In this document: piece after piece, positions 13,799 through 42,400 of the stretch | Layout: each line of letters starts with the position of its first letter | How positions within the stretch are numbered: position 1 is the stretch's first letter | Source: Ectocarpus siliculosus | Lineage: Eukaryota; Sar; Phaeophyceae; Ectocarpales; Ectocarpaceae | DNA length: 64,000 bases | Direction of reading: 5' to 3' | Assembly: GCA_000310025.1 (NCBI GenBank) | Contig: FN648396.1 | Location: 153,120 to 217,119 of the forward strand | Notes under the pieces: model-generated | What the model was told of the DNA's origin: nothing | Seen by the model: only the letters and a program-made list of their open reading frames with translations | Database searches by the model: none | Made by a program: the position numbers and the translations under genes

Positions 13799-16564
13799 CT
13801 ACGAGTAGGAATACACGCTCATGGCGTAGAATCCTCCGCACACTTGATCTGAGTCCCCCGGGCACTCATAGTCGCAAGAAGTTGACTCTCCGTGCTGCAA
13901 GAGGTCGGTTGAACTCCCTCCGCAGAAGCACTGCCATAGTAGATTCATGGCAGACAGACATGGAGAAAGTACGAAATGGAACATTGTGGGTGCTACTAGC
14001 TGCTTCTGTTCATTCCAATGGTTGGTTGGGTGTGTCATCTCCAGCACCGACGTACCCTCTGTGGCTCTCTTATACTGGTACTGTTTGGTGTTGGGTGATA
14101 GATACATCTGAAAAGCGTGTTTCTATGTCGGGGATCAGCGTACACGTGGAAGGTGGGAAGGTGGGGTCAGCGGCCGCCCGTAGTCGGATGATTAATTACC
14201 AGCGTTTGGATATTTGTCTCCATCGTCTGCTCGAGAAGACTACGCCATTTGGGTACGGAAGGATTAGATTAGTTCGGTCCTCTCACACCCGCCTACATGA
14301 CCAAACCTTCGTCACGATAGCAGCAACACAACTTGCTTGATAGCGTGGTTGTATCACAAGGAACCGCGTCTCACCTCCCTCCCGTACTGCATGCCGAAGT
14401 ACGTGTTTCCGGTGCACTCGGCCTCGCACCTCTGCAAAACGAACCGGTATCGAAGGCACAACAAAGGAGGGAAGAGCAGAAATCCTATCGACATCGAAAA
14501 GGAAGCTGTCACTGCTGAGGCTTCAAGACCAACTGTTCGATATCGAAACGGCGCTGAGTTTACTGCATACCGAAAGAGATAGGTACGCGGTTCTGTTGAG
14601 CATTAGGCACAGCAAGAGGAGCATTGGTCGTGTTGTATCGTCTGTTCAACACCGCAAGAGAAAAAATACAGGAACCCTGTGATAGAGCAACCGATCAGTA
14701 TGACACCGACAACAACCTCCCTCGCACCTCCTTGGTCATGGAAGAACTGTCCGTCAACGCGAGTTCCATGATGCGTGCGTCCGACTCGTCTTGGTAGCAT
14801 CCCACGAACGATGATGTCGTAGGCACGTCGTCACCCGTGTAAAGGTAGACGTTGGCGGCGTCGAACCCGCCGCACGTTTGGTCAGCGTCCCCTGCACAGG
14901 CATAGGTGCAGTCGGCGGACTCCCCGTGCAAAATGTAGTCCGCACCAGCCGAACCGCACCAGCACTGTTTGTGTTTATTCCAGGTAGAGGCAACACCGAC
15001 ACACAAGAAAGGCAGACAGGATGCGTTGTCGAGGCGAGGAAGGGTCGGCCATGCCACCGACATTGTGACTGCTAGAACCTTGGAATCATACTCCACGCAG
15101 AGCTATTTTGTTTGAGATTTCAGAAATATTCTTTGGGGGCGTTCTGTCCAGAAAAAGCCACAGCAAAGTGTGGTGGATGTTCGATAGGGCATATTTCCTA
15201 CAAGAAATACACATTTCATTATGAACGATTGTAGTGTATCCGCGATCGCATTCGTCAGCACCTCTGCTTCGTTCAAGGTACTGATACAACCGCCAAGACG
15301 ACTACTCCTACCTTGGTCCCAATATATCACACGGAAAATAATCCAACTACAGTCTAAGGGCGCCCAAAACTACAAGGTTCCCCACAACGACAGCCCGGTC
15401 GCAAAATATGGCACTTGTTGGTTACACTCCAAGCCAACGTGGTCGTGAAGGCTACTGCCATCTACCTGAGCTCACCTCTCGCCCGTACTGAGTGGCGAAG
15501 TAGGTGTTTCCGAGGCATGTTTGCTCGCACAGCTGATGTCAGCAACACGAAAAATTGAGAACGAAAGCGAGATGAGACAAAGGGAGCAAGTACCGAACCG
15601 AAAGTGAATTTCAAAACAGCATAGCGAGAAGACGGTGGCCGTTAACTTGACGGTGCCCGGGAAGGTTGCGACAAGTATGCCAAGCGTTGAAAAGGAGGAG
15701 TATTTTTCAACGTTTCTGCCGAAGCACGCATGGAGGCGGCTGTTCCTTTGACCGTTCAGTACGGTGGTCACACCCACCCAATACCACGACATACAGCCGA
15801 ATCGATTCATAGACTCGGCGTTCCAGTGCAAGCGCACACCGATCGTCTAGGGGGTCATGCATGAGCGCACCCCGTAGACACAAGGCATTGTTGTGTAGGG
15901 CGACTGACACATGACCAGCAACGAACGGCAAAATTCGATGTATAGGCCGACGGATAGGAACTGTGCAGGTCGCGCAATTAGTCGCCAGGAAATCTTCGGT
16001 GTAGAGTAAACGATGTGCCAATTAACAAGCCAGTTTGCGGGGTCGGAGCCCCGACAAAGTCACCGCATGTGGGGAGTCTTCTTGCGGAAACCCTTTCCAA
16101 GCATGCCACGTTGTGAGGGAAAATATCATACGTTTAAACATGCCTTGCGTCTGTTGAGAAGTTGCCAAATGGACTGAAGGCGTACCACTGGTTTTCGCCC
16201 ATCCTCCAGCGGACCAAAAACCATTTGATCAATCGATGCAAAACAGTATCGTTAAACAACTTAATCACCTCGGTCGTCATGGCGTTGTCGGAAAGAGCGA
16301 GGTCGTCCATGATACGGTCTTCGCGGTCGTCCTCGTAGCACCCAAGGGAAAGAGGGCTAGCGTCGTCTGCCGTGGGGCTAGGAGTGGGGCTGGGAGTGCT
16401 CTCGCCCTTGTAAAGGTAGACATTGGCGGCATCGAACCCGCCGCATGTTTGGTCCGCGTCGCCTGCGCAGGCGTAGGTGCAGTCGGCGGACTCCCCGTGC
16501 AAAATGTAGTCCGCACCAGCCGAACCACACCAGCACTGTGTGGGTTAGGTTCGGCAGAGGCAAC

Positions 16565-16596
<32 letters not shown>

Positions 16597-19500
16597 GATG
16601 TTTGGTCGAAGGGAGGGATGCTCGGCCATACTGGTAGCCCGATGGCAAGAACCTCAGAATCATAACCTCGTATGCATAGGTAGTTCAATTTCGGATTTCA
16701 GAAATATTCTTTGGAGGCGTTCTGTCCAGGAAAAGCCACAGCAAAGTGTGGTGGATGTTCGATAGGGCATATTTCCTACAAGAAATACAAATTTCATTAT
16801 GAACGATTGTAGTGTATCCGCGATCGCATTCGTCAGCACCTCTGCTTCGTTCAAGGTACTGATACAACCGCCAAGACGACTACTCCTACCTTGGTCCCAA
16901 TACATCACACGGAAAATAATCCAACTACAGTCTAAGGGCGCCCAAAACTATAATGTTCCCCACAACGACAGCCCGGTCGCAAAATATGCCACTTGTTGGT
17001 TACATTCCAAGCCAACGTGGTCGTGAAGGCTTCTGGCAACTACCTGAACCCACCTCTTGCCCGTACTGAGTGGCGAAGTAGATGTTGCCGAGGCATGTTT
17101 GCTCGCACAGCTGATGTCATAAACACGAAAACGTCGAAAAAGACAGCGCGAAGAGGCAATGGGAGCAAACGCCAAACTGATCGCACAAATGGAATTGAGA
17201 GGGAACAGTGGTCGGATATAGACTATTCGAACTTCACGTCACTAGGTACGTTCCGATGACAATAAAACGACACGTATTGGTTGGATGTTCATGCAGGAGC
17301 ACAGATGGAGACGAAGATCGTTCTTCCTTTGGGCATTCAGTACATTAGTCACAGTTACCCAACATCGCGAGGTACAGCGAATCGAATCATAGACTCGGCG
17401 TTCCAGTGCAATTCCACACTTCACCGAAGGTCTGGGGGGCTCCTGCAGTGGTATGCATGAGTGCAAGCCGTGGACACAGAACGGTGGTTGTTGTGTGGGA
17501 TTTTTGAGGTATGACCAACAACGGCAAAACTCGATGTAAGAGGTGACGAGTGTAAATGATGTACTGCCCTTCCCATCAAGATCAGTTTCCGGGGTATGAG
17601 TCTCGACGCATGTTGGGGGTCCTTGAGGAAACCCATCCCAAGCACGCCAAAGTGTGAGGAACATGATTTGCGCCTGTGGTACCTCTGGGTGTTGTCAATT
17701 CTCCATCGAACCAAATCTTCAGATGTTGATGCAGGGGAGTGGAAAAAACACAATGCCCGTATACATTCTGATCACCTCGGTCGTCATGGCGTTGTCGGAA
17801 AGAGCGAGGTCGTCCATGATACGGTCTTCGCGGTCGTCCTCGTAGCACCCAAGTGCAAGAGGACCAGCGTCGTCTGCCGTGGGGCTAGGAGTGGGGCTGG
17901 GAGTGCTCTCGGCAGCGTAAAGGTAGACGTTTGCGGCATCGAACCCGCCGCACGTTTGGTCAGCGTCACCTACGCAGGCGTAGGTGCAGTCGGTGGACTC
18001 CCCGTGCAAAGTGTAGTCCGCACCAGCCGAACCACACCAGCACTGTGTGGGTTAAGTTCGGCGGAGGCAACACGGACGGTCGAACGGACGGACGGGAAGC
18101 GAGGTTTGTTTGAGAACGCTTGTGGCAAGGGCAACATGCACACACGATGTGTGCTTTCCGGTACACTCCACGATACGGCCATCCCGGCGCGTAGATCGTC
18201 GCAAGACTAGTTTGTTTTTCATCATTTCCTAACATTTACAACGCGCAAACATACGCGATTCACAAGTACGACTTCAGAGTTCTGTTCATCGGCACATAGA
18301 TGAAAGACGGCCATATAGTCGTTTCTCGATTTCAAGGCGCGTAGTCTTACAGTATTGGACGGAAATTGTACGTAGGTTATCCCATTCGTTGCTTGAGGAA
18401 ATGCTGCCTCAGAACAGGATTCACTGCTCTGTTATGCAACAAACGCTGCTCGTCGCAGCACGTCGTTGAAGTTGTTAGTATTCTCGACATTGATAACAGT
18501 TCCGGAAGCCTCTCGGCACCCGTTGGTGTATGAACCATTACTTTTGGAGGGTTACGGACAACTCGATCGTCGCGGTAATTCGAAAGGTCTCGGATAGAAA
18601 AGGTACGCGTCTGCTTGACCTGAGTGTGCATTTATTAAAAGCAGGATGGACATATCACAGGAGAGTGATGACACATGTAAAAATATTTCGAGTTGTGTCC
18701 GCGAAACGTTCGTCACGAAATGAATACCTCTAAGTACATGTGCACCATTTGTCAGGGCAAGGCTCTATGCGTTTGACGCTAACTCACCTCTCGCCCGTAC
18801 TGTGTGGCGAAGTAGGTTTGACCGTTGCATGTCAGCTCGCAAAGCTGATGTTAGAAACACGTTGGCACGATACGGCAGAGGGAAGAGGGAAGAGGGAATT
18901 TCAGCAAACAAACAAGCGGACGTGCATTTTCAGACGAGACCTAGAGAAAAAGGCATTGATCAACGCTATGGCTACAGTGCAGATTTCACGCACCTCTCAA
19001 AGACTACACGTGGACAACGTAGGATCGTAGAACCTCTTGTTAGTCGCCTGGTACATTGGCCTCAGTCGCACAACATCATAAGACACAGGGTAACCCATCC
19101 AGAGATTGGCGTTCCTGTGAAACACCCCAACACGAGGCCGGTCTTCTACAGATGCCGCACGTGGGGATATGCGTGAGTGGCTACCGTGGACGTAGGGCGC
19201 TTCTAGCTGTGTAGGATGACATGTGCCCATCAACTTCCGAAATATCTACCAGTCGACGGGTGGGAGCTTAGACAATACAGGCCTGGTGCAAGACCATCAG
19301 CTAACTCTCTTCTACAGTAGTTCGCATGACATCTCTTCAACAGCTATTGTAGGACGAGAGCTTCGGAGGCTCGAATCTCGACGTGATGACTGCATCGTGG
19401 GGAATTCTTCATGAGGAACTCCTCGCAAGTATGTCTTTGTGTCTCTCCATCCCTCCCTCTCTGCAAAAACCGAACAACAGTGCGACCAATTTGTCGAACA

Positions 19501-19600
19501 TTTTAGTCACCTCGGTTGTCATGGCGTTGTCGGAAAGAGCGAGGTCGTCCATGATACGGTCTTCGCGGTCGTCCTCGTAGCACCCAAGCGCAAGAGGGGA
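13799..19600 (-). other. Gene A WSC-repeat region: four modular WSC domains
   Basis: Each WSC domain spans three exon pieces: the end of one exon (GCYEDDREDRIMDD), a 57-bp exon (LCEQTCLGNTYFATQYGRE or close), and the start of the next exon (CWCGSAGADY...CGGFDAANVYLY). The 57-bp exons are 18788-18844, 17054-17110, 15476-15532 and 14375-14431. All introns here are phase 0, so each 57-bp plus 267- or 237-bp pair is an in-frame unit. The last domain diverges (CFCGGSSTDLLQH) and ends at the stop codon. A (GACA)n microsatellite sits in one intron near 16570. Confidence 0.85.
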
Positions 19601-20361
19601 GCCTTCTATCACAGGGCTAGGAGTCGGGCTGGGAGTATGAGGCGCTTCATCTCTTATAGTGGGGCTGGGAGTAGGAGGGTCCAGACTGCCCGTGGGGCTG
19701 GGAGTGGGCTCCAATGTGGGGCTAGGCGTGATGCTGGGCGTGGGCTCGGAAGTAGGGTCTTGAACGACAGTGGGGCTAGGCGTCGGCAGCTCTTCATAAA
19801 CGGTGGCCGGTGAAGAACGGGTCGGATTGGCAAGGGTGGGAATGGGAACGAGTCAATCGAGCAAAGACAATCGGCAGCGAAGACGTTGCTGGATGACCAT
19901 CACGGCAGGGATATATGGGGTGTCAATCGATACTCAATAGTAGCGGTAGAAGTTTTACATCTTGCAGCCACGGGAAATAGCCCATAAAAGGTGTGAATCT
20001 TAGCAGGATGTTATAGACGTTGGGCACCTCTTAGGAAAGTCCGACCCCGAATTTAATCGTTTGTCCGGGAAGCAATTTCTACTTCAGCGTAAGGGGGCGG
20101 GCTTGGAGTCGGAATTTGGGTGAACAGATCGCCATTCTTGACTTCTAGCTGTGCGTGATGTGCGGAATCTTTCAATGGTGACTAACCACAGTACCTTCAC
20201 ACACGATGGCGCCCCGGCCGGAGGTTTCCCCCTCTGGGCAATCGGTGCACGGGGGCAAGCCGTCGCTGCTGAAGGTATTTTCTTCGCAAACGTCTGTTGG
20301 GGTTGTGTTGTGTCACATGTCGCACAGAGCGAAAGGGACGGAGAAAGGGAACGAATGAGAG

Positions 20362-20403
<42 letters not shown>

Positions 20404-23400
20404 AGAGATGGCTGATATTGGAATACGGTGCGGCACGAGGCGTGTGCGAGGCATGTGGCAAGGGACAGCTTACGAAACCGCCGGCGGTATGGCAAAGGAA
20501 TAGTTGATGGTGAAGCTCACCACCCCCAGCCGCTTCAACCTCCGTCTCGAACTCGTCGCCGGCTTCAAGGGTGGCAGCTCCCACATCCAGGCCCACGACA
20601 ATCGCGTCGAAGATGCACTCGGTGTTGTCTCTACACAGCTACAAGTATTCGGAATCGGGAGACAAAGCATCGGTGACGGGCGATAGCAGCGGGTGATCGG
20701 TGTCGGATGGAACGGGGAGTCCCGAATAGCAATATCCATGGAAATCAACGTCAAGACGAAGGGCAAATAGTACTCGCTGCGAACGGCAGGCAATATCCTG
20801 GACCAATAACGGTGTCACTTCGATTTTGGGGGGGTTGGTCTTATGTTCGCTAATCTTCTCTATGCTGGAAAGACATGACCATCGCCAGGTCCGATCTCGA
20901 CTAAGCCTCAAAAATGAAAGGATCGAACCCCTGCTCGATGGTGTTCGAGCGACGTTCGAACAGGGGAGGGGCGTGGGTTCTCCAGGACGCACCCTCTCCA
21001 ACAACGGAGCCATGCCCCAAATAATGTGGACAACGCAGAACAAACATCACTAGGCAGCTGTTGCGGGTGATTAATCGAGCTAGTTCATGGTGAAGATAGG
21101 TGAAATTTTCAAGTACTAGCGCCTTGGAGTCGAGCTACGCATGAACTGCGCGTGAACCTGAGCTCGATCAAGTATCATCCATAACGCGTATGCGTACCTC
21201 TTCCACGTCGGTGGGGATGACATCTGGGATCACCGGCGCGGTGTAGTCGTCGACGCTGGTTTGCAAGCGGCGCAAACGGCGGGAGGGAGACGAAAGCAGG
21301 CTCACTTCCGGTTGCCAGTTGGACGTGCAATAGTTGTACCCTTCGGCGATGGACGCCGCCCCGGTACCGATCGTCTCGCCCGTGGAATCCTGCGAGAGGG
21401 GAACCAATTGAGGTGTTGGGAATTGACGAGGGACTTTGCTGGAAGGTACAGAAGCCTTAAATTAGACGCGTCGGAGATATGAGAGGGAGGGATATATCGC
21501 AGCTTGGCATGGGGGTTCGGCCGCAGTTTTTCCCCAAAACGTTCGATCTCTTGAAAATAGGGAGGGAGAGTGTGAATGCCGGGTGGGAGGCAAACTATTC
21601 TCTCGGAAAGCTCTCGCGCAGTTTTAACGTATGTATGGACACCACAAACAACGCGTATGAATACACATATGCACTTGTAGAACAACTGCATTGCCGTGTA
21701 GATTGGTACACAGCGTTTCGGCCACTGGTAGTGAGTGACTATTTCGGGCATGTCCCACCCCAACGGAAGGAAGCGGTTGGAAACCGGAGACGATGATGCA
21801 TGAAGTCACACGTTCAGAGCCAAATCGATACCCGACGTCCGTGCTTTGGGAACCCACAATTTTGTTCGGTTTGTGTGCGGTGCTCGTTCGTTCTGAATTC
21901 ACATCTAACGGGACTCGATGCATCGTGCGTCTAAAACAACGATTTGCAGGACATACACCCACGTGGTGAATGTTTCTACAGCCAAACCAATACACCGAAG
22001 GGTTCCCGCCGCCACAGGCTCATCGCGAAAGCTCCGCTCAATGAAATACCGCCACCTATTGGCCGCCTGTACAAATCTGGCTATTCATCTACCGAGGTGA
22101 CGCAGTTCTCACCGTCCAATCATCGGCCATGTTCCCGTTGTTGGTGCCGAGAACGCCGACCGTAGACATGGCGAGGGGCGCGTACACGTAGACGCCCCCG
22201 ATGTAGTTCGGGTCCGTGAACCAGCGCCTGGCGTTCACCTGCAACCCTGAGGGAAACAACATGTCCACGTTCTGGTCGGTGACTGTGAGCGTCACCCCGG
22301 TCATGGTCTCGGGGAAGTCTCCTCCCTCGTATGCATAAGGCTCTCCGTCGATCAGGATGGTCCGCTCGCCGTCGTTAACGGTGACCTCGATGACAGAGGA
22401 GCCGTCTTCGGTTGCGGCCACGCCGGTGGTGAAGGAGGCATCGGGGCTGACGAGCGGCTCAAATCGTGCGTGCACCATGGCACCCGTGTCCGCCGAGTTG
22501 AGCAGCACGAAGTCGCCGTCTCCATGGCAGTCGAAGGCGAGGCCATCGAACGTGCGGCAGTGCGGGTCACCGTGACAATAGGCGCCTATTGTGCAGCAGA
22601 GGCAAACGCGACATGGGCAGGAGGGGGCACGTGAGCGCAGTTTGGGAAGGGCTCAATGGGATTGGAGTGTGGCAAATCTCTCTGGAATATTGTACCGTGA
22701 CTCTTAGAACTGGCGGGTCAGACCGAACAAAATTCCGCTTTCGTAGGTGCTTGCATTTTCGACGTAAGTAGTATGAAAATCCTCTGAATAGATATTATGT
22801 CTATCCACCCAAACCTTCCGACCTATAGGTTGGGAGTTCTAACCCGGCTGTTAAGGTCGCATGGATTGGGAATATGTATCTCACGGCTTACCTAGCAATG
22901 AGGGGAATAATATGACGAGCACACACTAATCGACACATTGTCGACGAGTGCCTGCCGCAACCGTCCCACAGTCATCACCAGGGCAAGCACCCCAGAACGA
23001 CGGCGGACGAAAATACATCATTGGCTGTTGTACCGGAATGGCTTTCCCCATGTTTGATCCCGGCTGGTACTACCACAAAGTACACGGAAAGGTGTAGCAG
23101 CTGGTGCCCAGAAAAAATAGATGGGATGATATCACACCAGTGTCTTCGAGCGTATCCTGTTTCGTGGATATATCTTCTCGTGGTCCCAACTGCACGTAGC
23201 GCAGACACTAGGCGATATTGTGGAAGAACAGCTTCGGCAGGAGCTCCGCGGGCACAAAGCCGTTCGTCCGAAGCGTTGGTCGACATCAGGTGCGCACGGC
23301 AGTTTGAGTATCGACCGACACTGCGACCTACCACGTCCACGTTCTGGATAGAGGAGAAACGGGAAACACACCCCTGATCACGTCTCACCACGCATGGTTG

Positions 23401-25342
23401 GGGCAGGCGTGGGAGCAGGGGTGGCGTCGGTGACAGGCGCTGGCGTAGCCGGCGATGGCGTGGCCGGGCTAGGAGTGGCTGCCAGGGTAGGAGAAGAAGG
23501 GAACGCATGAGCGGGCGTAGTATCCAGTTGGATTGGGAAAGCAGCTGTCATGCAGTTCGACCTGTGATGCACCAATATTTCCCGCATCGGGGTATAATAC
23601 TGTACGGTTCAAGAACAGGACTTCCAACAGGATTTCATGATTCGAAGACATGAGGGACGAGCTATTCGTGAAGATTTAAAGCGGTTCTTCAGTTGGCACA
23701 ATATCTTGAACCGTACTCACGACATATCCCGGTGTCCGGTTCCTCGATGTAGTAAGGATCCTCAAATGCGGACAGGTCGATGGCGTTTTGCTCGTCGTCA
23801 ACGTAGGACAGCTGGACGAAGTTGTCGTCCCAGGTGTAGGAGGTGTCGCAGTTGTCAAGATAAAGGTTAAAAAGCCAGTAATAGTATCCCCCGGACTCTG
23901 AGTATCTCTGATCGAGCTCGCCCATGTCGAACGTGAGGCTCAATTGATCATCAGATGCGTCCCCCCACAATGTACTGCTGCCTGAGGCATAACCCCCGCT
24001 CACGATAGGTCCCGTGAAATCGATTGTCACGATCGGGTTCGACGACACGCACTGCGAAGGTCGACGTCACACACCAAGCGCGAGGGAGCGATAGCAATGG
24101 AAGTGATCGAGTTGAACATCATGGCAAACAAAAGGGCGAATGAAGGTTGGCAAATGGATCCCAATGAATTCAATAGTCGGACGTGTGTGTGCTGTGGACG
24201 AACGGGAGAGCCCACACATTCCTCCACGAGCCCTCTGTGAGACAATGCAAAACCTATGTTGCGCAGCACAGTCTTCAATACGTCTCTCACGCCACGGAGG
24301 TCACCCATATACCGTAGGTTGCCTAAGATATCACACTTTCATTAGATACCACACCCCCTCAGAAAACGTTCACAATACCACACCCGTGTGCTATTTTTTT
24401 CAATCCCGAAAAAAGCGTAATTTTATCACACGGTGACACAAGATACCACACCCCCTGAAGTTGGGCCGTACATTATCGACGGAGCCCCCGCTTATCACAC
24501 GGTGAAGGCATGAGATCACAAGCAACAACCTACTCGTAAAGGCCATGGAGGCCAACAATCCCGTGGAGGGTGGTGCAGTTAGCAACCCTGCTGAAAGCCC
24601 CGCGGCTCAGACTGCAGTGGGTAAGACTCCAGCGGCGGCCCCACGTTCCATAGCGTCCTTCTTTCAACCCGCCCCGGGGGAACGTGGGGCTGCTGGGACG
24701 ATTCACTCCGCAGCCGCGCATGACACCGCACGTGCAGCTGAGGCCCGCCCAACAGAATCTACCGCTGCTGTGACTCCCACAGCACCGGCTGCGCCTGCCA
24801 CCGCGGGTGCCGCTGAAACCTGCGAAGCAGAACCTACTGTTGAGACTCCCGCAGCACCCACACCCACACCCGAAACGGCAGCTCTCCCGCCAACCACCAA
24901 CACCCTGAGCGCGGCTACTGCTGAGAACCCTGCAGCAGCACCGCCCTGCGGAGAACCATCGTGCACCAACAAGCCCTTGTTGTCACACCCCCTGTTGGTG
25001 GGGCTCTGTGAGTGCACTTTATCACACGGGTGACATAAGATATCACACCCCCTACAGAATACCACAACCGTATGATAACTATTGTCCCCCCGAAAATGAT
25101 ATCACACGGGTGCGGTATCTTATGCAACCTACGGTAGCTGTGTGAGATAACTGCACCACATCACTCACGTTGGTCTCCCGTTTGATCTGGAAGAAAAGTC
25201 CAGCTCGATCACACGACGTTGAACTGATCGTTCCACACGGGTACCATAACACGTAGGACCCACTGATACACTGGCTGGACGCTCGGCCCATGGACAGGAG
25301 AGCCATAGCGGCGATGAGAAGATGCTTCGGTCCCCCCAACAT
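13799..25342 (-). CDS. Gene A: secreted VWD and four-WSC-domain protein
   Basis: Fifteen exons join in phase: 25169-25342, 23721-24051, 23389-23478, 22113-22585, 21198-21389, 20521-20638, 19511-19791, 18788-18844, 17776-18042, 17054-17110, 16269-16535, 15476-15532, 14728-14964, 14375-14431, 13799-13930. The product is about 929 residues (951 if exon 3 starts at 23544). Order: signal peptide (1-24), short Cys-containing segment, unknown domain (59-169), TPSPATPSP linker, VWD module with CHGDPHCRTFDG (199-356), a CxxNxxCIFD segment near 421, a second TPSP linker, then four WSC domains with eight cysteines each. WSC domains are carbohydrate-binding or wall-stress modules, so an extracellular-matrix or wall role is likely but inferred. 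The start was chosen by alignment with gene B; an upstream in-frame ATG exists at 25372. Confidence 0.8.
20340..20400. repeat. (GA)n microsatellite
   Basis: About 35 bp of near-perfect GA repeat lies in the gene A intron between exons 20521-20638 and 19511-19791. Open frames that cross it are meaningless Arg/Glu or Ser/Leu runs. Confidence 0.9.
20521..22585 (-). other. VWD cassette of gene A (exons 4-6), absent from gene B
   Basis: Exons 22113-22585, 21198-21389 and 20521-20638 total 783 bp (261 codons) and are bounded on both sides by phase-1 introns. The first encodes a von Willebrand factor type D-like module: GDPHCRTFDGLAFDCHGDGD, followed by beta-rich sequence and GTNNGNMADDW. The third begins LCRDNTECIFDAIVVG, a CxxNxxCxFD pattern that often follows VWD modules. 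In gene B the flanking exons join directly in the same phase. Confidence 0.8.
24312..25134. mobile_element. TA-flanked TIR DNA transposon in gene A intron 1
   Basis: Terminal inverted repeats start CCGTAGGTTGCCTAAGATA on the left, with the complement at the right end. TA dinucleotides flank the element at 24310-24311 and 25135-25136. Internal copies of ATCACACGGGTG and ATACCACACCCC form subterminal repeats on both sides. Removing the element and one TA leaves an intron of 292 bp, exactly the length of the matching intron in gene B (46881-47172), which also shows the flanking sequence uninterrupted. The ends resemble those of the MITE at 561-777. It contains one open frame, 24545-25033. Confidence 0.85.
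24545..25033 (+). CDS. Ala/Pro/Thr-rich ORF inside the intron-1 transposon
   Basis: An uninterrupted 162-codon frame starts MEANNPVEGGAV and is composed mostly of Ala, Pro, Thr and Glu. A short PRSIASFFQPAP motif near residues 34-45 resembles the degenerate PCNA-binding motifs found in some transposases and repair proteins, but lacks the usual Gln. No catalytic transposase residues are visible. It may be the N-terminal remnant of a transposase or a chance frame in GC-rich sequence. Confidence 0.35.
   Translation: MEANNPVEGGAVSNPAESPAAQTAVGKTPAAAPRSIASFFQPAPGERGAAGTIHSAAAHDTARAAEARPTESTAAVTPTAPAAPATAGAAETCEAEPTVETPAAPTPTPETAALPPTTNTLSAATAENPAAAPPCGEPSCTNKPLLSHPLLVGLCECTLSHG
25169..25342 (-). 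CDS. Gene A exon 1: signal peptide
   Basis: The exon encodes a hydrophobic signal peptide (LLIAAMALLSMG, probable cleavage near SSQ) followed by QCISGSYVLWYPCGT and a donor GTGAGT at phase 0. The corresponding gene B exon, 47173-47355, shares the QCIS..YV.WYPCGT and CDRA.LFF.I.RE blocks. Confidence 0.8.
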
Positions 25343-33457: not shown

Positions 33458-36400
33458 CTACGAGTAGGAGTACACGCTCATTGCATAGAATCCTCCGCAC
33501 AATTCATCTGAGTCCCCCGGGCACTCGTAGTCGCAGGCAGTTGACTCCCCGTGCTGCAAGAGGTCGGTTGAACTCCCACCGCAGAAGCACTGTAAGAGTA
33601 GATTCATGGCAGACAGACATGGAGGCAGTACGAAATGGAATTTGTGGGTGCTGTTAGCTGCTAGTGTTCATTCCAGGCGATGTTTGGTTGTGTCTTGTCC
33701 AGCACCGGTGGATCCTATATGGCTCCCGTAAATACCGCTGGCAAAGGTGTATCGGGGTGTCCCGTGGCATAAAGGGGTGCTGCACGGAGCTACGAGGTTC
33801 ATGACCTCCTGGCACAAGAAGGAAGAGGAGGCTAGCCGACAACGAGCGCTCAAACGAAACAAGAAGCCCGGCAACAACACGGACACGGCAATAACCACTG
33901 GTACAGCAGGCAGACGAGACGGCGAGGGAAGCCAGGAACGCGAAGAGCCGGACCGAGTGGCGCGAAAATGCTGTGCCGGATTGAACCCCTTGCTTGCCTT
34001 AACCCCCCCCCCCCCTCCCCCCCCCCTCGGCCTTGTTTGCCATCGGGGTTTGGGTTTTCGTCGCTTGGCAACGACGTTGTAAAACAAGCCGCCCCCCCCG
34101 GTGTTTGTCATCGGGGTTGGGTTTTCGTCGCTTGGCAATGACTTTGTAAAATAAGCCCTCCACTCGGTGTTTGCCATCGGGATTGGGTTTTCGTCGCTTG
34201 GCAAACGACGTTGTAAAACAAGCCAATTCACTTCGTGAACTCGGCAACCAGGTTACCGTTTTTTTTTTTTACCTCGTTTTTTTTTTTTGGCGGTAACCAT
34301 AATGGTGGTCGAGTAGATCATGTTGTGCGGGTCGAGAACCCTCACTCCGCGCAACGGGGGATGATCGCACCACGTTGTGTTGAAATGGTCAAGCATCCTC
34401 GAGGCAGTTACACAGTGCTTACAACTGTCTCTGGAAGTGAAAGCACCAGAAAATAAATTAAGTCATACGTAGCTGTCATCCGTACGCAAGGAAGTACGCA
34501 CAAGATGCCGAACACCCTTAGCAGGATGCAGCTCGCCCTTCATGCGACTCGCCAAATACCTCACGGCGCTTCGCGCTTGGTGATGTGAGAGCCTGGTCCG
34601 GTGAGAACCCGGCGTGCTCCGTCCCGGCTTTGTAGGGATGCGAGGTCAATGGTCTAACGACTACGGCATGCACGACTATGAGTACACCCCCCCCCCCCCC
34701 CCCGGACTTTCACCGTTTGCACCCACCCCCCCCCAAAGAAGACCTGGAATTTTATGGGTCCGGGGGGGGGCCGCCTGGTGGTTTTTGTTGTCTTTTGTTA
34801 ATAAATTTGGTTTTTTGTCCTTGGGCCCGGGGGGGGGCTTTTTCTGTCTGGGAAATATCCCTTTCATTTCAAACCCCTCCTCCGAACCCCTCCTTTTCCT
34901 TTTCCTTTTTCCTTCCTTAATTCCCGGCCAAGGGTTACCCCCCATGGGGTGGAAAAGCCAACGGAATGAGCCAATCTATCTATCCTTGAATTTTATTGAC
35001 TTGGGGAACCCTTCGGTCCCTTTTAATTTCCTAAACCTTTTTTGGGGAAATTAACCCGGGAATACCGGAAACCACCCCCTCCAGTCTTAAAATAATACCG
35101 AAAAAAAAAAGGGCTGGGCGAAAAAACCGAAACTTTNNNNNNNNNNNNNNNNNNNNNNNNNNNNNNNNNNNNNNNNNNNNNNNNNNNNNNNNNNNNNNNN
35201 NNNNNNNNNNNNNNNNNNNNNNNNNNNNNNNNNNNNTGGGGATGGGGGGCAAATGTTTTAAGGATTCCGCCAGCCCCGATTAGGGGCCCCCCCCCCCCCC
35301 CCCCCCGGCACTTCACCGTTGCACCGACCCCCCTCGAACGATGACGTGCAATTTGATGGCTCGGGGGGGGCGCTGCGTGTTGTTTTGTGTTGTCTTGTGT
35401 TAGTAAGTTTGTTTGTTTGTCGTTGGTCACGGCGTGTGTCTTTCTCTGTCTGTGAATTATCCTTCTCATTCAAATCTCTTCATCTGATCTCTTCTTTTTC
35501 TTTTTCTTTTTTCTTTCTTTATTTCCAGTCTAGGGTTACCTCGCATGGCGTGTAGAGGCGAGCGGAGTGAGCTAGTCTATCTATCGTTGACTTTTATTGA
35601 CTTGCGGACCCTTCGGGTCCATTTTAGTTTCGTACACCTTTTTTGGGTAAGTTAGCCTGCGATTACGGGAATCGACCCCGTCAAGTCTTAGACTAGTACG
35701 GACAGAAGAAGGTGCTGGGCGAGAGACCGGAACGTTTTCATCTAAAGTGAAGACAACAACAACAACAACAACAACTGTTTCGTGTTGGATGATAGATGCA
35801 TGTGAACAGCGTGATTCTATGTTGGGAATCAACGTACAAATAGGCTCGTGGGCAAGCTGGGACGGCGGTCGATCATAATCGGATGTTTAAGGCCACCAGC
35901 GTTTGAATAAATGTCTCCATCGTCTGCTCAACAAGGCTGCGCAATTCGGGTACGGACACAGGGGATTAGATCCTTAGAGTATCTCGGTCCTCTCACACCC
36001 GCCTACATCGCCACACCTCGTCGCGATCAAAAGCAGCAACGCAACTTGCTTCTTGGTGTGATTGTATCACAAGCAACCGCATCTCACCTCCCTCCCGTAC
36101 TGCATGCCGAAGTACGTGCTTCCGGTGCACTCGGCCTCGCACATCTGCAGAACCAACCGATCAAAGACAACAACAACAGCGGGAAGAGCAGAAGTTATCA
36201 TCGACTTCGAGATGGAAGCTGTCACTGTTGAGGCTCAAGACCAACTGCTCGATGTGAAAACGGTGTAAAGTTTACTACCGATAGAGGTAGGCACGTGGTT
36301 CTTTTGAGCATTCGGCACATCAGGAGGATTGGTCGTGTTGTATCGTATGTTCAACACGGAAAGAGAAAAATACACAGGAAACCTGTGCTAAAATAACCGA

Positions 36401-39400
36401 TCAGTATGACACCGGCAACAACCTCCATCGCACCTCCTTGGTCATAGAAGAACTGTCCGTCAACGCGAGTTCCATGATGCGTGCGTCCGATTCGTCTTGG
36501 TAGCATCCCACGAACGTTGATGTCGAAAGCGCGTCGTCACCCGTGTAAAGGTAGACGTTGGCGGCATCGAACCCGCCGCACGTTTGGTCAGCGTCCCCTG
36601 CACAGGCGTACGTGCAGTCGGTGGACTCCCCGTGCAACGTGTAGTCCGCACCAGCTGAACCGCACCAGCACTGTTTGTGTTTATTCCAGGTAGAGACACC
36701 ACCGACAGACAGACACAGAGGATGGAACGTTTTGTCGAGGCGAGGAACGCTCGGCCATACCGGCAGCCGGACAACTAGAACTTCGACAAAAGAATCCTCA
36801 TAGGTCTATGTAGTTAGTTAGGGATGTCCGAAATATTGCTTGGGGTGTCCTTTTAAGGAACAGTTACAACACAAAAACCTTTGTTCGATAGGCGTACATC
36901 GGTCATAGACAATAGCGAATACGACGAACTCAACGATCCTCACCCCGATCACTTTCGTCAGCACCTCCTCAGTACGTGGTGTGTACCATGCGTACACAAC
37001 CAGCAAGACGAGTATTCCTACCGTGGTCACAGAACGTTGAGCGAAATGCAGCACAACTAAAACGTCCCCAATATCACATCGCGGTCGCGAAATATGATAC
37101 GAGTTGGTTATATACCAAGTTTTTTATCGTTAAGGTTACTGCCATCTACCTGAACTCACCTCCCGCCCGTACTGAGTGGCGAAGAAGGTGTTGCCGAGGC
37201 ATGTTTGCTCGCACAGCTGATGTCATAAACACGAAAACGACGAAAAAGAAGGCGCGAAGAGGCAATGGGAGCAAACACCAAACTCGATGTGTTGAAAAAA
37301 AGAACAGCAGGGGCCGTATATTTTCGAACTTGACGGCACTCGGATAGGTTCCGATATCTAAAAAACAAAACCTTTTGGTTGGACGTTCATGAAAGGAGCG
37401 CAGGTGGAAACGGATACCATTCTTCCTTGGCCATTCACTACATTAGTCACAACCACCCAGCACCACGAGATACAGCCGAATCGATTCATAGACTCGGTAT
37501 GCCAGTGCAAGTCCATGCTACACCGATCGCCTGGGGATGCCACACAGGGACCTTGTTGTCGTTGTTGTGTAGTGTGACCGAATTATGGCCAACCACAGCA
37601 ACCTTCGATGCAAGAGCCAACCGGTGTGAACTATATATATCACCTACCCGCAGTAGCTAGGCGTCACGTTGACATCGCTCCAGAGTAGGAGACATGTTGC
37701 AACACCAAGGAGCAACACCAGTTTCCGCATTTTCGGGATCTTTTTTGAGGAAACCCCTCCCAAGCATGGCAAATCGGGAGAAACACGATTTGCGCCTGGT
37801 GATATGCGGCTAAAACACTATGGGGGCGTACCTCTGGTCGTGGTCTATCTTCGCACGAACCAAACAAAGCTCGCATTCATGAAGGGAATGGAACAAACAC
37901 GATGTCCGTAAACATTCTATGTGATCACCTCGGTTGTCATCGAGAAGTCGGAAAGAGCGAGATCGTCCATGATACGGTTTTCGCGGTCGTCCTCGTAGCA
38001 CCCAAGGGAAAGAGGACCAGATTCGTCTGCCGTGGGGCTAGGAGTGGGGCTAGGGGTGCTCTCGCCCGTGTAAAGGTAGACGTTGGCGGCGTCGAACCCG
38101 CCGCACGTTTCGTCAGCATCCCCTGCGCAGGCGTAGGTGCAGTCGGCGGACTCCCCGTGCGAAGCGTAATCCGCACCAGCCGAACCGCACCAGCACTGTT
38201 TGTATTTGTTTCATGTTGAGGCAACAAACAGATGGGCGGGACGTGTTTCGGCCGTGAGCGCTATTGGCAAAGGCAACAGACACACGCAATCTTGAGGTTT
38301 TTGGTGGAGACGACGAAAGCTTGACCATACGGCCAGCCGGACAGGCAGAGCCTTGTGATCAGTTTGGTTTTGGTTCCAATGCATAAAATATCTGTTTGGG
38401 ACCAACGCCGCTCGGAGCGCATAGACGAAACAATCCACCAGTACGATTTCAGAACTTTGTCCATCGACATGAAATTGAAAAACGGAAATATAACCGCTCC
38501 TCGATTTTCACGCTCTTATGTGTAGAGGATTGAACGGATCGTCTACGCACTTTCATTCTTTCCTCGGGCATTCACCGACCAAGAGTCGCAAAAAAGTCTC
38601 CACTGCTCTTGCATATGATACAAGCTGCTTGCCATTGTCGTCGTTGTGTTGTTGGCCCCCATTGACAATCGTGTTAACTCTACCTATTCCTCCGTTGGTC
38701 ACAGTTAAGCTAGGACGACAACGGAAAGCTCAAAGTTAGTGCAGAACCAAGGGCAGCGCAACGTGAGCGTCGCACTAGATAGTTCTACTTGCCCGGGATA
38801 GAAAGCGTAGAAGGGCTGCTTGGGAACCGGTGTGTGTAGTGAACCTCTTTCGGGAATGTCGCAGGAGAAGACGACCAGCAGTCACACATCCAAAATGGTT
38901 TCAACGTGTTCCTTCGAAACGCTTCTCGCACAAACGAAACCATCCGAATCTTTCCAGCACCTGACTCCTCGTCATCTGCTTGAACTCACCTCTCTCCCGT
39001 ACTGAGTGGCAAAGTAGGTGTTTCCGACGCATGTTTGCTCGCATAGCTGTCGTTAGAAACACGTACAGCAGGTAAAATACCGGCAGGGGGAAGAGGGAAA
39101 TGCAGCAACCACGCAAGCGGACAGGCGTTATGAACACGGTGTAAAGAAAAAAAGAAAGGGGTTGATCAAAAGGATGGCTGACGACAAGATACACGCATAA
39201 TCCCAACGGCTACAATAAGAAGTGCGCAATCTTCTGTTCGTGGGTCTACGGACATGGTTTGGATATGTTAGCCGTACGTACAAGTGTGACGCAGATGGTG
39301 TAGAACCTTTTAGGTAGGGGTACGGTGATGATGCACCGGGGCCCCCTTTTGTTGTGTGCAGCAGCCCTGCTGCCACTCCTCCTTTCTGAGCACGACAGCG

Positions 39401-42400
39401 CCCTGGGTACGGGCGTTGCCTCACCGTCTGAAGTTAATACACTACACAAACAATACCCGATAAGCACGCGGAGTACGGCCGACAAACACTCTAGAGTTTA
39501 GATTGATTGTCCCTCGAGGGATAGCCGCATCGGGTCATGTCTGCGTCGGACAGCGGTTCCGTCGCAGGGCTGGGGGAAGAGACCCCAGCCACGCAACAGC
39601 AACACGCCGAGGATCCGGCGATTGCGAGGCTGGAGGGCCAGTTATCGCAGCTGATGAGCGTAGTGATGGAGTTGAAGAGGAAGGAGCCTGGTGACGCCGT
39701 GGCGGGCGATGCCAGTAGGGGCGGCGGTGCTGCCGTCCCAAGCCAGAGAGAGGCTCTGCCGCCTGGGGGCGGCGGGGCGTTTTCCCAGGAAACGGCCCGT
39801 GATGGGCGAAATCACCCGCGGGAAAGCAGCTGGGACAACATACCGGGAGCGAGTCCTGGGGTTCCAGCGAGAGTGACGACTGGCTGGGCAGGTAGATCGG
39901 GAGCGAATCCTGTGGGGCCAGCCGGAATGAGCCCGGGCGTAGGACCGGACCGCGGGGAAGCGAGGGGGTTAAACCCCCAAGGTGAGCAAACCGCAATTCG
40001 AGGGGCCGGAGCATTTTTTGATGGGTACAGCAGTAGTAGCCAAAAACGTGTTACGGTCAATGCACCGCGTCTCGAAGGGGAGAGTCGCGGCCACGGGTAC
40101 GACTCGTGGAGGAAGGCCCTTATTCAAGCCGCAAAAACCGTAGGCTTGGACGGGCAGCTTATCGGCAACGCCGAGAAGCACGCACCCGTCGGTGACCCAA
40201 ACAGGCCTAGCTCGGAGCTGTATAGCTTGGGCTACACAAGTGATGAGGTTCAGAGGGGTCTCCAGGCGTTCCACTTTGTGACTACAGCCATCGTCCGAGA
40301 AGCCGACAAGGCAATCGTGAATAAATGCGAGACCGCAAAGGAGATCCTTGCGGAGCTCGACAAAGTACACAACCCGGAGTCGCAGGGCTCGAAACAAGCC
40401 CTCATGAAGAAGATGTTTCGATTCACGATCCCCGCACACAGCAACAGCAACCCTGTCGAGCATCTATACACGCTCGAGCTGCTGTACTCACGACTGCGGG
40501 AAAAAGGGCTCAACGCTGACACACCCTTTGTTCTCGCACACTTTGTCGATGCCCTTCCACCCGAGTACCAACAAGCCAAATTCTTGTTGGAGACGGCTAC
40601 AAACCTGGACCGGGGCGAGATAATCAGGGTAGTCAGTACCGTGCACGCGAGCCTCCCGGAGGGGAGGAGGGCCACGAAGGGCCAGCGGAAGGCGGAGCAT
40701 GCTTTCCTCGCGAGCGACGGTGGCAACAGGGGCGGAGCGCCCGGCCGCAACAGCGGCGGCCACAGCAAGGGCGGCGGCGGCGGTGGCAGCCAGAAGGGGA
40801 AAGGGGGTGGTCGCAAGGGCGGTGGTGGTGGCAACAGCGGCGGAGGCGGCGGCGGTGCAGGTAGCATGCACGGCCGCTGCTTCCGGTGCGGAGAGAAGGG
40901 TCACCAGGCGGCCGCCTGTACCAAGCCGGAGCCCCTGCGATGCGAGAAATGCCTGGGCTACGGACACGACAAGAGCAAGTGCTCGTCCGAGCAGGCGGTG
41001 CTCGCGGTGGAGCTGCCGGTCTTGGACGCCACCGCACTGGACGTGGCAGAGGAGGCGCTAGTGGTCCGTGACTTCACAGGCGAGTGGAACAGAGTCGTTG
41101 ATCGAGGGGGTGTAGAGCAGGCCAGGCAGGAAAGGTTTGTGGCCGATACCGGCGCAACCAACCACATGTTCCCGAGCGCTAACGCGTTCGAAAAACTACC
41201 ATGAGTGCGATCGACGTTTGAGTGTCGCCGCAGGGAAGCAAGCCTTCGCCATAGTAGGCTACGGCGACGTGAGGGTGTCCATCGGTTCTCGCGTTGGGAC
41301 CACAGACCTGCTGTTGAAACGGGTCGCTCATGTGCCGGAGCTGAATTACAACCTCGTGTCCCTCACAGCCCTTTTGAAGCAAACCAAGGGCCGCTTAGCC
41401 GCAGACGAGCGTGAGTTGGAGGTGTTCGTTGGTGGGGGGGAGTCGGTGTACTTCCCTCTATGGGGGGACCTGTTCGTTCAGACTGGTCACCGCATAGAGT
41501 CGGGTAGGGAACTAGCCTGTGCCATAATTGCTCCTGGTAACGCGAAAGCGAACCGCACCCCCGTTGACATCAACGACTTCCACTGCGCGCACGGCCACTC
41601 CCACGAGGTGCTGCTGAAGAACACGGCGAAGCAGCAAGGGGTGACGCTGGTGGGTCAGCTCCGGGAGTGCATGGGGTGCTCGACGGCAAAGGGGCTATCC
41701 AAGCCCATCCCCAACAGGACGTCAACCCGAGCAGTTAAGAAACTGCAGAGAGTGTTCGTGGATTTGAGTGGGAAGGCAAGGGTGCAGAGCTTGGGGGGGA
41801 AGTGGTACACTCTCATTGTAAGGGATGACTGCACGAGGTGGAACCGCGTCTACTTCTTGAAAAACAAGTCAGACGCTGCAGAGGCATTCGAGAGATACCT
41901 AGCGGAAAACAGGGCAGACGGAGCCCCATCCGAGGTCATGGTCGTGCGGTCTGACAACGGAGGAGAGTTTTTCGAGGGAGAGTTCGGAAAGCTGTGCCGC
42001 AAGTATTGCATCAAGCAGGAGTTCACCCCCGCATACAGCCCAGAATACAACGGTGTAGCTGAGAGAGCACTGGGACTGATAAAGGATGCAGCACTAGCCG
42101 CCCGCATACAAGCGACGATTCTTTACCCCGAAGCACCAAGCTACCCCTCCCTTTGGGCCGAAGCCACAGCTTGGGCATGCAACGCCCTGAACTGCACCTC
42201 CACCACATCCAACCCGGACAAGAAATCGCCGTACGAAATGTGGCACGGGCACCCACCTCCACCAGAGGCGACGTACCCGTTCCTCAAACCCGCCGTATAC
42301 AAGGTCAAGCGCACGCACAAGTCAGAGCCGAAAGCAAAAAAGTGTTTTTACCTCGGCCCTGGAATCAACACAAACCGTGATTGCGTACGCATCCTGAACG

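What the first reader, a model, noticed from the sequence alone, without database searches (positions are those of the whole stretch)
20521..22585. VWD module behaves as a symmetric class 1-1 exon cassette, present in one paralogue only
The three VWD-region exons of gene A total 783 bp and are bounded by phase-1 introns. In gene B the neighbouring exons (45994-46059 and 45028-45245) join directly without a frame change. This is a clear case of whole-module gain or loss between recent tandem duplicates in a brown-algal-type genome.
Basis: partly seen in the sequence, partly recalled or inferred. Interest (0 to 1): 0.8.

Follow-up and report, generated by a model that had tools for sequence, protein, structure and literature searches.

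The report
Repeated loss of a VWD module
In a family of secreted, probably sugar-binding proteins of a fucoxanthin-bearing alga, neighbouring gene copies differ because one conserved protein module was deleted from some copies, apparently several times over, while the rest of the protein stayed readable.

Summary
Gene A (minus strand, 25342-13799) reads as 16 exons with GT-AG introns and one open frame of 962 aa: signal-like start, unknown N-terminal domain, Pro-rich linker, VWD, C8, a short Cys-rich exon, four WSC units. The VWD-C8 exons (22585-22113, 21389-21198, 20638-20521) total 783 bp between phase-1 introns; inner introns are phase 0. Gene B (47355-33458) reads open for 536 aa, linker joined to WSC exon phase 1 to phase 1.

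It is loss in B, not gain in A. B's 748-bp intron still holds part of A's intron 3, a truncated, splice-dead relic of A's exon 7, and part of intron 7. The window's whole genome holds eight family members; of the seven that reach past intron 3, three keep VWD and four lack it, with four different deletion end-point pairs. Common descent of the four VWD-less copies is rejected (AU test); two losses are the strict minimum, four the simplest reading. Three VWD-less copies are fully open; where tested (B, C11a) their WSC parts are under purifying selection. A and B are not very recent duplicates. What the loss does to the protein is inferred only.

The parts
25169..25342 (-). gene A exon 1: ATG, signal-peptide-like start (174 bp)
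   Evidence: open frame, GT donor, phase 0; paralogous exon in B, C9a, C11a, C24
23721..24051 (-). gene A exon 2: N-terminal domain of unknown family (331 bp)
   Evidence: no Pfam match at its cut-off; 9 matches in the genome belonging to 8 genes
23389..23478 (-). gene A exon 3: Pro/Thr-rich linker, class 1-1 (90 bp)
22113..22585 (-). gene A exon 4: VWD domain with GDPH motif, phase 1 in, 0 out (473 bp)
   Evidence: Pfam PF00094 37.8 bits; dN/dS 0.08-0.14 among the three close copies
21198..21389 (-). gene A exon 5: first part of VWD-C8 tail, phase 0-0 (192 bp)
20521..20638 (-). gene A exon 6: C8 domain, phase 0 in, 1 out (118 bp)
   Evidence: PF23263 C8-3_MUC4 over exons 5+6, residues 58-99 of 103
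   Evidence: weak sub-threshold likeness to TNFR/NCD3G models only
19511..19791 (-). gene A exon 8: Pro-rich linker plus start of first WSC unit, phase 1 in, 0 out (281 bp)
13799..18844 (-). gene A WSC array, exons 8b to 12 (four WSC units, all phase 0-0 exons, stop at the 3' end)
   Evidence: Pfam WSC
47173..47355 (-). gene B exon 1 (183 bp)
46544..46880 (-). gene B exon 2, unknown N-terminal domain (337 bp)
45994..46059 (-). gene B exon 3, linker, class 1-1 (66 bp)
45640..45993 (-). gene B intron, part homologous to intron 3 of A and C9a (limits approximate)
   Evidence: B 45884-45793 to A 23135-23044 and B 45913-45732 to C9a 5604772-5604591; weaker to about 45620-45640; above 100 of 100 shuffles
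45546..45623 (-). relic of exon 7 in gene B: first 25 bp and acceptor missing, donor changed (limits approximate)
   Evidence: above 100 of 100 shuffles
45028..45245 (-). gene B exon 8, linker plus WSC start; uses an acceptor 5' of the one used in A
33458..39046 (-). gene B WSC array, exons 8b to 12 (three WSC units)
39235..44519 (+). copia-type LTR retrotransposon in the intron after gene B exon 8 (described only)
   Evidence: 254-bp LTRs 99.6% identical, 5-bp flanking repeat

Best explanation
Genes A and B are paralogues in a small family of secreted multidomain proteins (unknown N-terminal domain, Pro-rich linker, optional VWD-C8 plus short Cys-rich exon, then 2-6 WSC units). The VWD-C8 part is ancestral to the compared members. 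In B it was removed by one DNA deletion running from within intron 3 to within exon 7; exon 7 lost its acceptor and donor and became intron, and splicing now joins linker to WSC exon phase 1 to phase 1. Other paralogues lost the same part through other deletions: C9b (intron 3 to intron 5), C11a (intron 3 to inside the second WSC linker exon, with a new acceptor at the junction) and C24 (inside exon 3 to inside a WSC linker exon, an in-frame exon fusion). Phase symmetry and repetitive Pro-rich linkers made such losses survivable; copies that keep VWD keep it under strong constraint. Shown: gene structures by sequence, relics, end points, tree test, selection. Inferred: that VWD-C8 contributes self-cleavage at GDPH or inter-protein contacts in the wall or matrix, and that VWD-less copies act as simpler WSC lectin-like proteins.
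For: B's intron keeps intron 3, truncated exon 7 and intron 7 in order, each above 100 of 100 shuffles, and none of exons 4-6. Genome search: 8 family genes; the close VWD exon in 3 of them. Four VWD-less copies with four different end-point pairs. Outgroup-like C1 (52% identity) retains an exon-3 remnant and the start of intron 3, so the fused exon of C24 looks derived. AU test rejects monophyly of the four VWD-less copies (p 1.6e-99 with 8 genes, 0.009 without the partial C11b) and of the VWD-bearing ones (0.0007, 0.007). Open frames with GT-AG at every modelled intron: A 962, B 536 aa, C11a 391, C24 811, C9a 863. dN/dS of the VWD exon 0.08-0.14; of the WSC part 0.14-0.22 in 6 of 6 pairs of A, B, C9a, C11a, including the VWD-less pair B-C11a, 0.17 (0.10-0.28).
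Against: No transcripts or relatives from other species were available. Branch supports are modest (61-81 UFBoot). Sister groupings B+C24 (AU 0.23, 0.20) and C9b+C11a (0.18, 0.69) are not rejected, so a shared smaller deletion later widened in each line is possible and the strict minimum is two losses. C9b is frameshifted in exons 1 and 2, so its loss may be decay of a dead gene. C11b lacks exon 1 and half of exon 2, and an 8,041-N gap hides what follows its exon 6. Gene conversion between copies could mislead the tree. Only 7 of 15 intron pairs that would remove exon 4 are frame-compatible, so keeping the frame is not very unlikely by chance. The function of VWD here is untested.
Confidence: 0.86

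Rival explanations
1. Gain: the VWD-C8 cassette entered gene A by exon shuffling after A and B separated.
For: The cassette is class 1-1 and a distant VWD-C8-exon 7 set (about 41-44% identity) sits in other genes of the genome.
Against: B has a relic of exon 7 and flanking intron pieces; C9a and C11b carry the same exons with alignable introns; the tree puts VWD-bearing copies apart.
Confidence: 0.04
2. Fewer losses: one deletion shared by B and C24 and one shared by C9b and C11a, each later widened.
For: AU does not reject B+C24 or C9b+C11a as sisters; the missing stretch of C24 contains that of B.
Against: No two copies share an end point; the best tree pairs A with B and C11a with C11b; C9b and C11a would each need a widening on opposite sides.
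Confidence: 0.2
3. The VWD-less copies are simply dying genes, so the loss has no functional meaning.
For: C9b is frameshifted; B carries a retrotransposon in an intron.
Against: B, C11a and C24 have complete open frames with canonical sites; dN/dS of the WSC part is 0.17 between the two VWD-less copies B and C11a.
Confidence: 0.12
4. Assembly error: VWD exons of B were dropped from the contig.
For: The assembly has gaps (for example 35137-35236; 8,041 N near C11b).
Against: No N between 45245 and 45994; the junction lies inside a diverged exon relic; three other copies show their own deletions.
Confidence: 0.02

Closest known systems
Class 1-1 extracellular modules of Metazoa (Patthy review, PMC8001218; passages seen)
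   Same: Module flanked by phase-1 introns in a secreted multidomain protein; that paper stresses class 1-1 modules of extracellular proteins.
   Different: Here in a fucoxanthin alga, whereas the passages seen ask why exon shuffling is restricted to Metazoa; and the event shown here is loss by deletion, not insertion.
Snake venom metalloproteinase domain loss (PMC4963849, passages seen; Casewell 2011 seen only in its reference list)
   Same: Paralogues of a secreted protein lose a domain through intronic insertions and deletions and splice-site change.
   Different: Different proteins and lineage; here several end-point pairs with a surviving exon relic are compared inside one genome.
Exon shuffling of LRR exons in brown-algal ROCO genes (Teng 2024, PMC11378527, passages seen; Zambounis 2012 seen only as a citation, its text is not held)
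   Same: Exon-level turnover of repeat modules in an algal gene family.
   Different: Those are phase-2 LRR exons of candidate receptors; here a class 1-1 VWD-C8 part of a secreted WSC protein is deleted. The WSC array here varies in phase 0-0 units.
VWD-C8 part of FCGBP and gel-forming mucins (PMC10880436, passages seen)
   Same: VWD followed by C8; GDPH motif, reported there to cleave itself; sequence match to FCGBP E 2.5e-24.
   Different: The Cys of the GLCG stretch seen in FCGBP is absent in 6 of 6 algal rows; TIL and E domains were not recognised; the partner domains are WSC units.

Membership tests
Class 1-1 symmetric module | both flanking introns in phase 1 | tested here: met
   exon 4 in phase 1, exon 6 out phase 1; exons 3 and 7 also 1-1; same phases in C9a
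Class 1-1 symmetric module | coincides with a folding domain | tested here: met
   exons 4-6 = VWD plus C8
Class 1-1 symmetric module | found shuffled in unrelated gene contexts with the same flanking phases | tested here: inconclusive
   C18, C212, C303 keep the order exon 4-5-6-7, C26 exon 4-5-6; phase-1 entry of exon 4 can be read in C18, but whole host genes were not modelled and direction of transfer is unknown
VWD domain (PF00094) | score above Pfam cut-off | tested here: met
   37.8 bits against 22.9
VWD domain with GDPH | GDPH motif at the start | tested here: met
   invariant in 6 of 6 aligned rows; the seventh copy, C303, left out of that alignment for a stop inside, also shows it
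VWD domain with GDPH | self-cleavage at Asp-Pro | not testable with these tools
   needs protein
VWF / gel-forming mucin D assembly | VWD-C8-TIL-E order | tested here: not met
   VWD and C8 found; exon 7 gives only sub-threshold matches to other Cys-rich models, no TIL
VWF / gel-forming mucin D assembly | Cys in the GLCG stretch of VWD | tested here: not met
   absent in 6 of 6 rows; GLCG present in FCGBP rows shown
WSC-domain proteins | Pfam WSC above cut-off | tested here: met
   single exons 30.3, 35.5, 32.8 bits against 27.8
Post-duplication domain loss | relic or partial remnant of the lost part in the shorter paralogue | tested here: met
   exon 7 relic and intron 3 and 7 pieces in B
Post-duplication domain loss | short paralogue still makes a protein | not testable with these tools
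   no RNA; only open frame and dN/dS

The most novel reading that the evidence does not exclude
Outside animals, a lineage that became multicellular on its own keeps class 1-1 VWD-C8 modules in matrix-type proteins and switches them off paralogue by paralogue: in two of three genomic clusters a VWD-bearing copy lies near a VWD-less copy that still reads open (A/B; C11b/C11a), as if a network-forming form and a plain sugar-binding form were kept side by side (in the third cluster, C9, the VWD-less copy looks dead).
Probability: 0.2. Interest if true: 0.62.

Novelty: new member of a known kind. Interest (0 to 1): 0.42.

Why it matters
It turns an ambiguous gain-or-loss into a documented loss within one genome, and shows the same module leaving a gene family by several different deletions while the rest stays open and, where tested, constrained. 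That makes the family a compact natural test of what VWD-C8 adds to WSC proteins in an algal wall, and of whether class 1-1 organisation of extracellular proteins, discussed mainly for animals, also eases domain turnover in another multicellular lineage.

Tried and rejected
Gain by exon shuffling in A: rejected on the exon-7 relic. Transposon-borne insertion in A or deletion in B: B's junction stretch 45600-45790 matched only itself in the genome. In C9b a repeat with 39 further scored copies (40 of 2,314 candidates scored) abuts the junction, so a repeat may have taken part there only; whether it came with the deletion or later is unknown.

Structure: AlphaFold2 models of the exon-2 domain (mean pLDDT 44.8) and the VWD exon (51.9) were too poor, so no fold search was run. 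The exon-2 profile had no useful match in PDB sequences (best E 0.7).

Literature: searches (call numbers) showed no paper on VWD loss in algal WSC proteins; that is a statement about these searches of an open-licence library, not about print as a whole. Relatives in other species could not be sought: the genome tool holds no relatives for this assembly, and the other contig collections were not searched.

First model of C11a had wrong exon-3 limits and showed one stop; the corrected limits gave an open frame. The C9b reading began one base off, so its count of 11 stops is not used; one search repeats the reading. YN00 failed for some pairs; NG86 values are quoted. Candidate further loss: C19 holds exon 7 and the downstream domain of the C18-type gene, but no VWD, C8 or WSC match in the 18 kb taken; a 338-N run lies there; not pursued.

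Full report
What is there. Gene A lies on the minus strand. Joining exons at the splice sites seen in the sequence gives 16 exons, 15 introns all GT-AG, and one frame of 962 aa without inner stop. The order is: signal-like exon 1; exon 2, a domain with no Pfam match at cut-off; exon 3, a Pro/Thr-rich linker; exon 4, VWD; exons 5 and 6, C8; exon 7, a 33-aa Cys-rich exon; exon 8, linker and WSC start; then WSC exons to the stop, four units in all. Intron phases for introns 1-8 are 0, 1, 1, 0, 0, 1, 1, 0; the WSC exons that follow are 0-0. Gene B gives 10 exons, 9 GT-AG introns and 536 aa, with three WSC units.

Loss, not gain. B's intron between 45994 and 45245 is 748 bp. Against 100 dinucleotide shuffles it matches A's intron 3, exon 7 and intron 7 better than any shuffle, but exons 4, 5 and 6 no better than chance: 59, 96 and 26 of 100 shuffles reach the observed scores. 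The pieces lie in the same order as in A. The exon-7 relic starts about 25 bp into the exon, so the acceptor is gone, and the donor GT is changed. B's exon 8 uses an AG upstream of A's. A deletion from intron 3 into exon 7 explains this directly. Gain in A would need B to hold pieces of an exon and introns that it never had.

The family. The window's own genome is held (189 Mb, 492 contigs). The exon-2 domain finds 9 matches belonging to 8 genes (two matches are the two halves of C9b). The VWD exon finds 7 places: A, C9a (91%), C11b (89%), and four distant ones at 43-46%. Pfam's VWD model finds the same seven genes. C1 ends in an exon-3 remnant and intron 3 with no later exon found in the 18 kb taken, so it is left out of the count of VWD presence: 3 of 7 keep it, 4 of 7 lack it. 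End points of the missing stretches: B, intron 3 to 25 bp inside exon 7; C9b, intron 3 (C11b-equivalent 221089) to just before exon 6, with a repeat of at least 39 other copies at the join; C11a, intron 3 94 bp before exon 4 to inside the second WSC linker exon, spliced in the model through an AG at the join; C24, inside exon 3 (A-equivalent 23424) to inside a WSC linker exon (A-equivalent 19623 or its repeats). No two agree. Three of the four VWD-less copies (B, C11a, C24) read fully open. C9b has a shifted frame in exon 1 and another shift in exon 2.

How many losses. On 1,138 columns from upstream of exon 1 to the start of intron 3, the best tree pairs A with B (SH-aLRT 82.6, UFBoot 76) and C11a with C11b (85.1, 81). 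Forcing the four VWD-less copies together is rejected (AU p 1.6e-99 with all eight genes, 0.009 without C11b), as is forcing the VWD-bearing ones together (0.0007, 0.007), B with C11a (0.0067, 0.0063), B with C9b (0.0051, 0.011), C11a with C24 (0.026, 0.028) and B with C9b and C11a (0.0022, 0.0037). B with C24 (0.23, 0.20) and C9b with C11a (0.18, 0.69) are not rejected. So at least two losses follow from the tree alone; the end points make four the simplest count. Gene conversion could disturb the tree.

Selection and age. The VWD exon differs among A, C9a and C11b with dN/dS 0.11, 0.14 and 0.08 (NG86). The WSC part gives 0.14-0.22 in 6 of 6 pairs of A, B, C9a and C11a, upper bounds up to 0.39; for the VWD-less pair B-C11a it is 0.17 (0.10-0.28). 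C24 was not in that test. Exon 1 is loose (0.60-1.14). A-B dS is 0.39 in exon 2, 0.46 in exon 1 and 0.21 in the WSC part. These are not very recent duplicates.

Was the frame saved by symmetry? Of 15 intron pairs that would remove exon 4, 7 are frame-compatible. B joins phase 1 to phase 1, C11a does so through a new acceptor, C24 by an exon fusion in frame. Symmetry allows the loss; it is not proof of shuffling, and keeping the frame is not rare by chance.

What it may do. VWD with GDPH is reported to cleave itself in FCGBP and related proteins, with effects on stability (PMC10880436, passages seen). GDPH is invariant in 6 of 6 aligned algal rows. FCGBP and mucins are the nearest solved relatives by sequence (E 2.5e-24 and 2.5e-9). 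But the algal VWDs lack the Cys of the GLCG stretch, and TIL and E were not recognised, so filing it as a VWF-like multimer unit is not warranted. WSC proteins are named among brown-algal wall proteins in a review figure legend (PMC8307928, passages seen). The proposal that VWD-bearing copies add cross-links or cleavage, and VWD-less copies are simpler wall lectins, is inference.

Organism. Light-harvesting genes are many (87 matches) and the best one is nearest to fucoxanthin-chlorophyll proteins (FCP17 of 9ygv, E 2e-97). That supports a fucoxanthin alga; the species was not identified.

Verdict. Observation confirmed; interpretation partly supported and sharpened to loss in B. It belongs to a known kind, post-duplication domain loss, with the added point of repeated loss of one class 1-1 module in one algal genome.

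Noticed in passing
window 39235-44519: Copia-type LTR retrotransposon in the intron after exon 8 of gene B, antisense to it, LTRs 254 bp and 99.6% identical with a 5-bp flanking repeat; a young insertion. Described only.
   Followed up: partly
window 24310-25136: About 827-bp insertion in intron 1 of gene A with inverted ends (TACCGTAGGTTGC), absent from B; looks like a DNA transposon with a 175-aa Pro/Ala-rich frame.
   Followed up: partly
window 18073-17771 and 16566-16264: Two WSC exons of gene A are 94% identical; WSC number differs among paralogues: A 4, B 3, C9a 3, C11a 2, C24 6 by the gene models.
   Followed up: partly
L049 (C19:2127001-2137000), near 2132171 and 2133333: A C18-type gene with exon 7 and a downstream domain, but no VWD or C8 match in 18 kb: a possible further loss in a sister family.
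   Followed up: partly
L038 and L039 (C212, C303), L037 (C18): Near-identical VWD genes: C212 and C303 99.8% identical over 7 kb, both about 95% to C18; C303 has a TAG inside VWD. Haplotypes or recent copies.
   Followed up: partly
L031 (C11b, C11:222483-218784): C11b lacks exon 1 and the first half of exon 2, and an 8,041-N gap starts after its exon 6.
   Followed up: partly
L027 around C9:5616894-5617370: Repeat of about 480 bp with 39 other scored copies at 90% identity or more, at the C9b deletion junction.
   Followed up: partly
whole genome G000: At least 102 WSC exon matches (150 of 244 candidates scored), and long runs of light-harvesting genes on C92, C232, C488 and C16.
   Followed up: no
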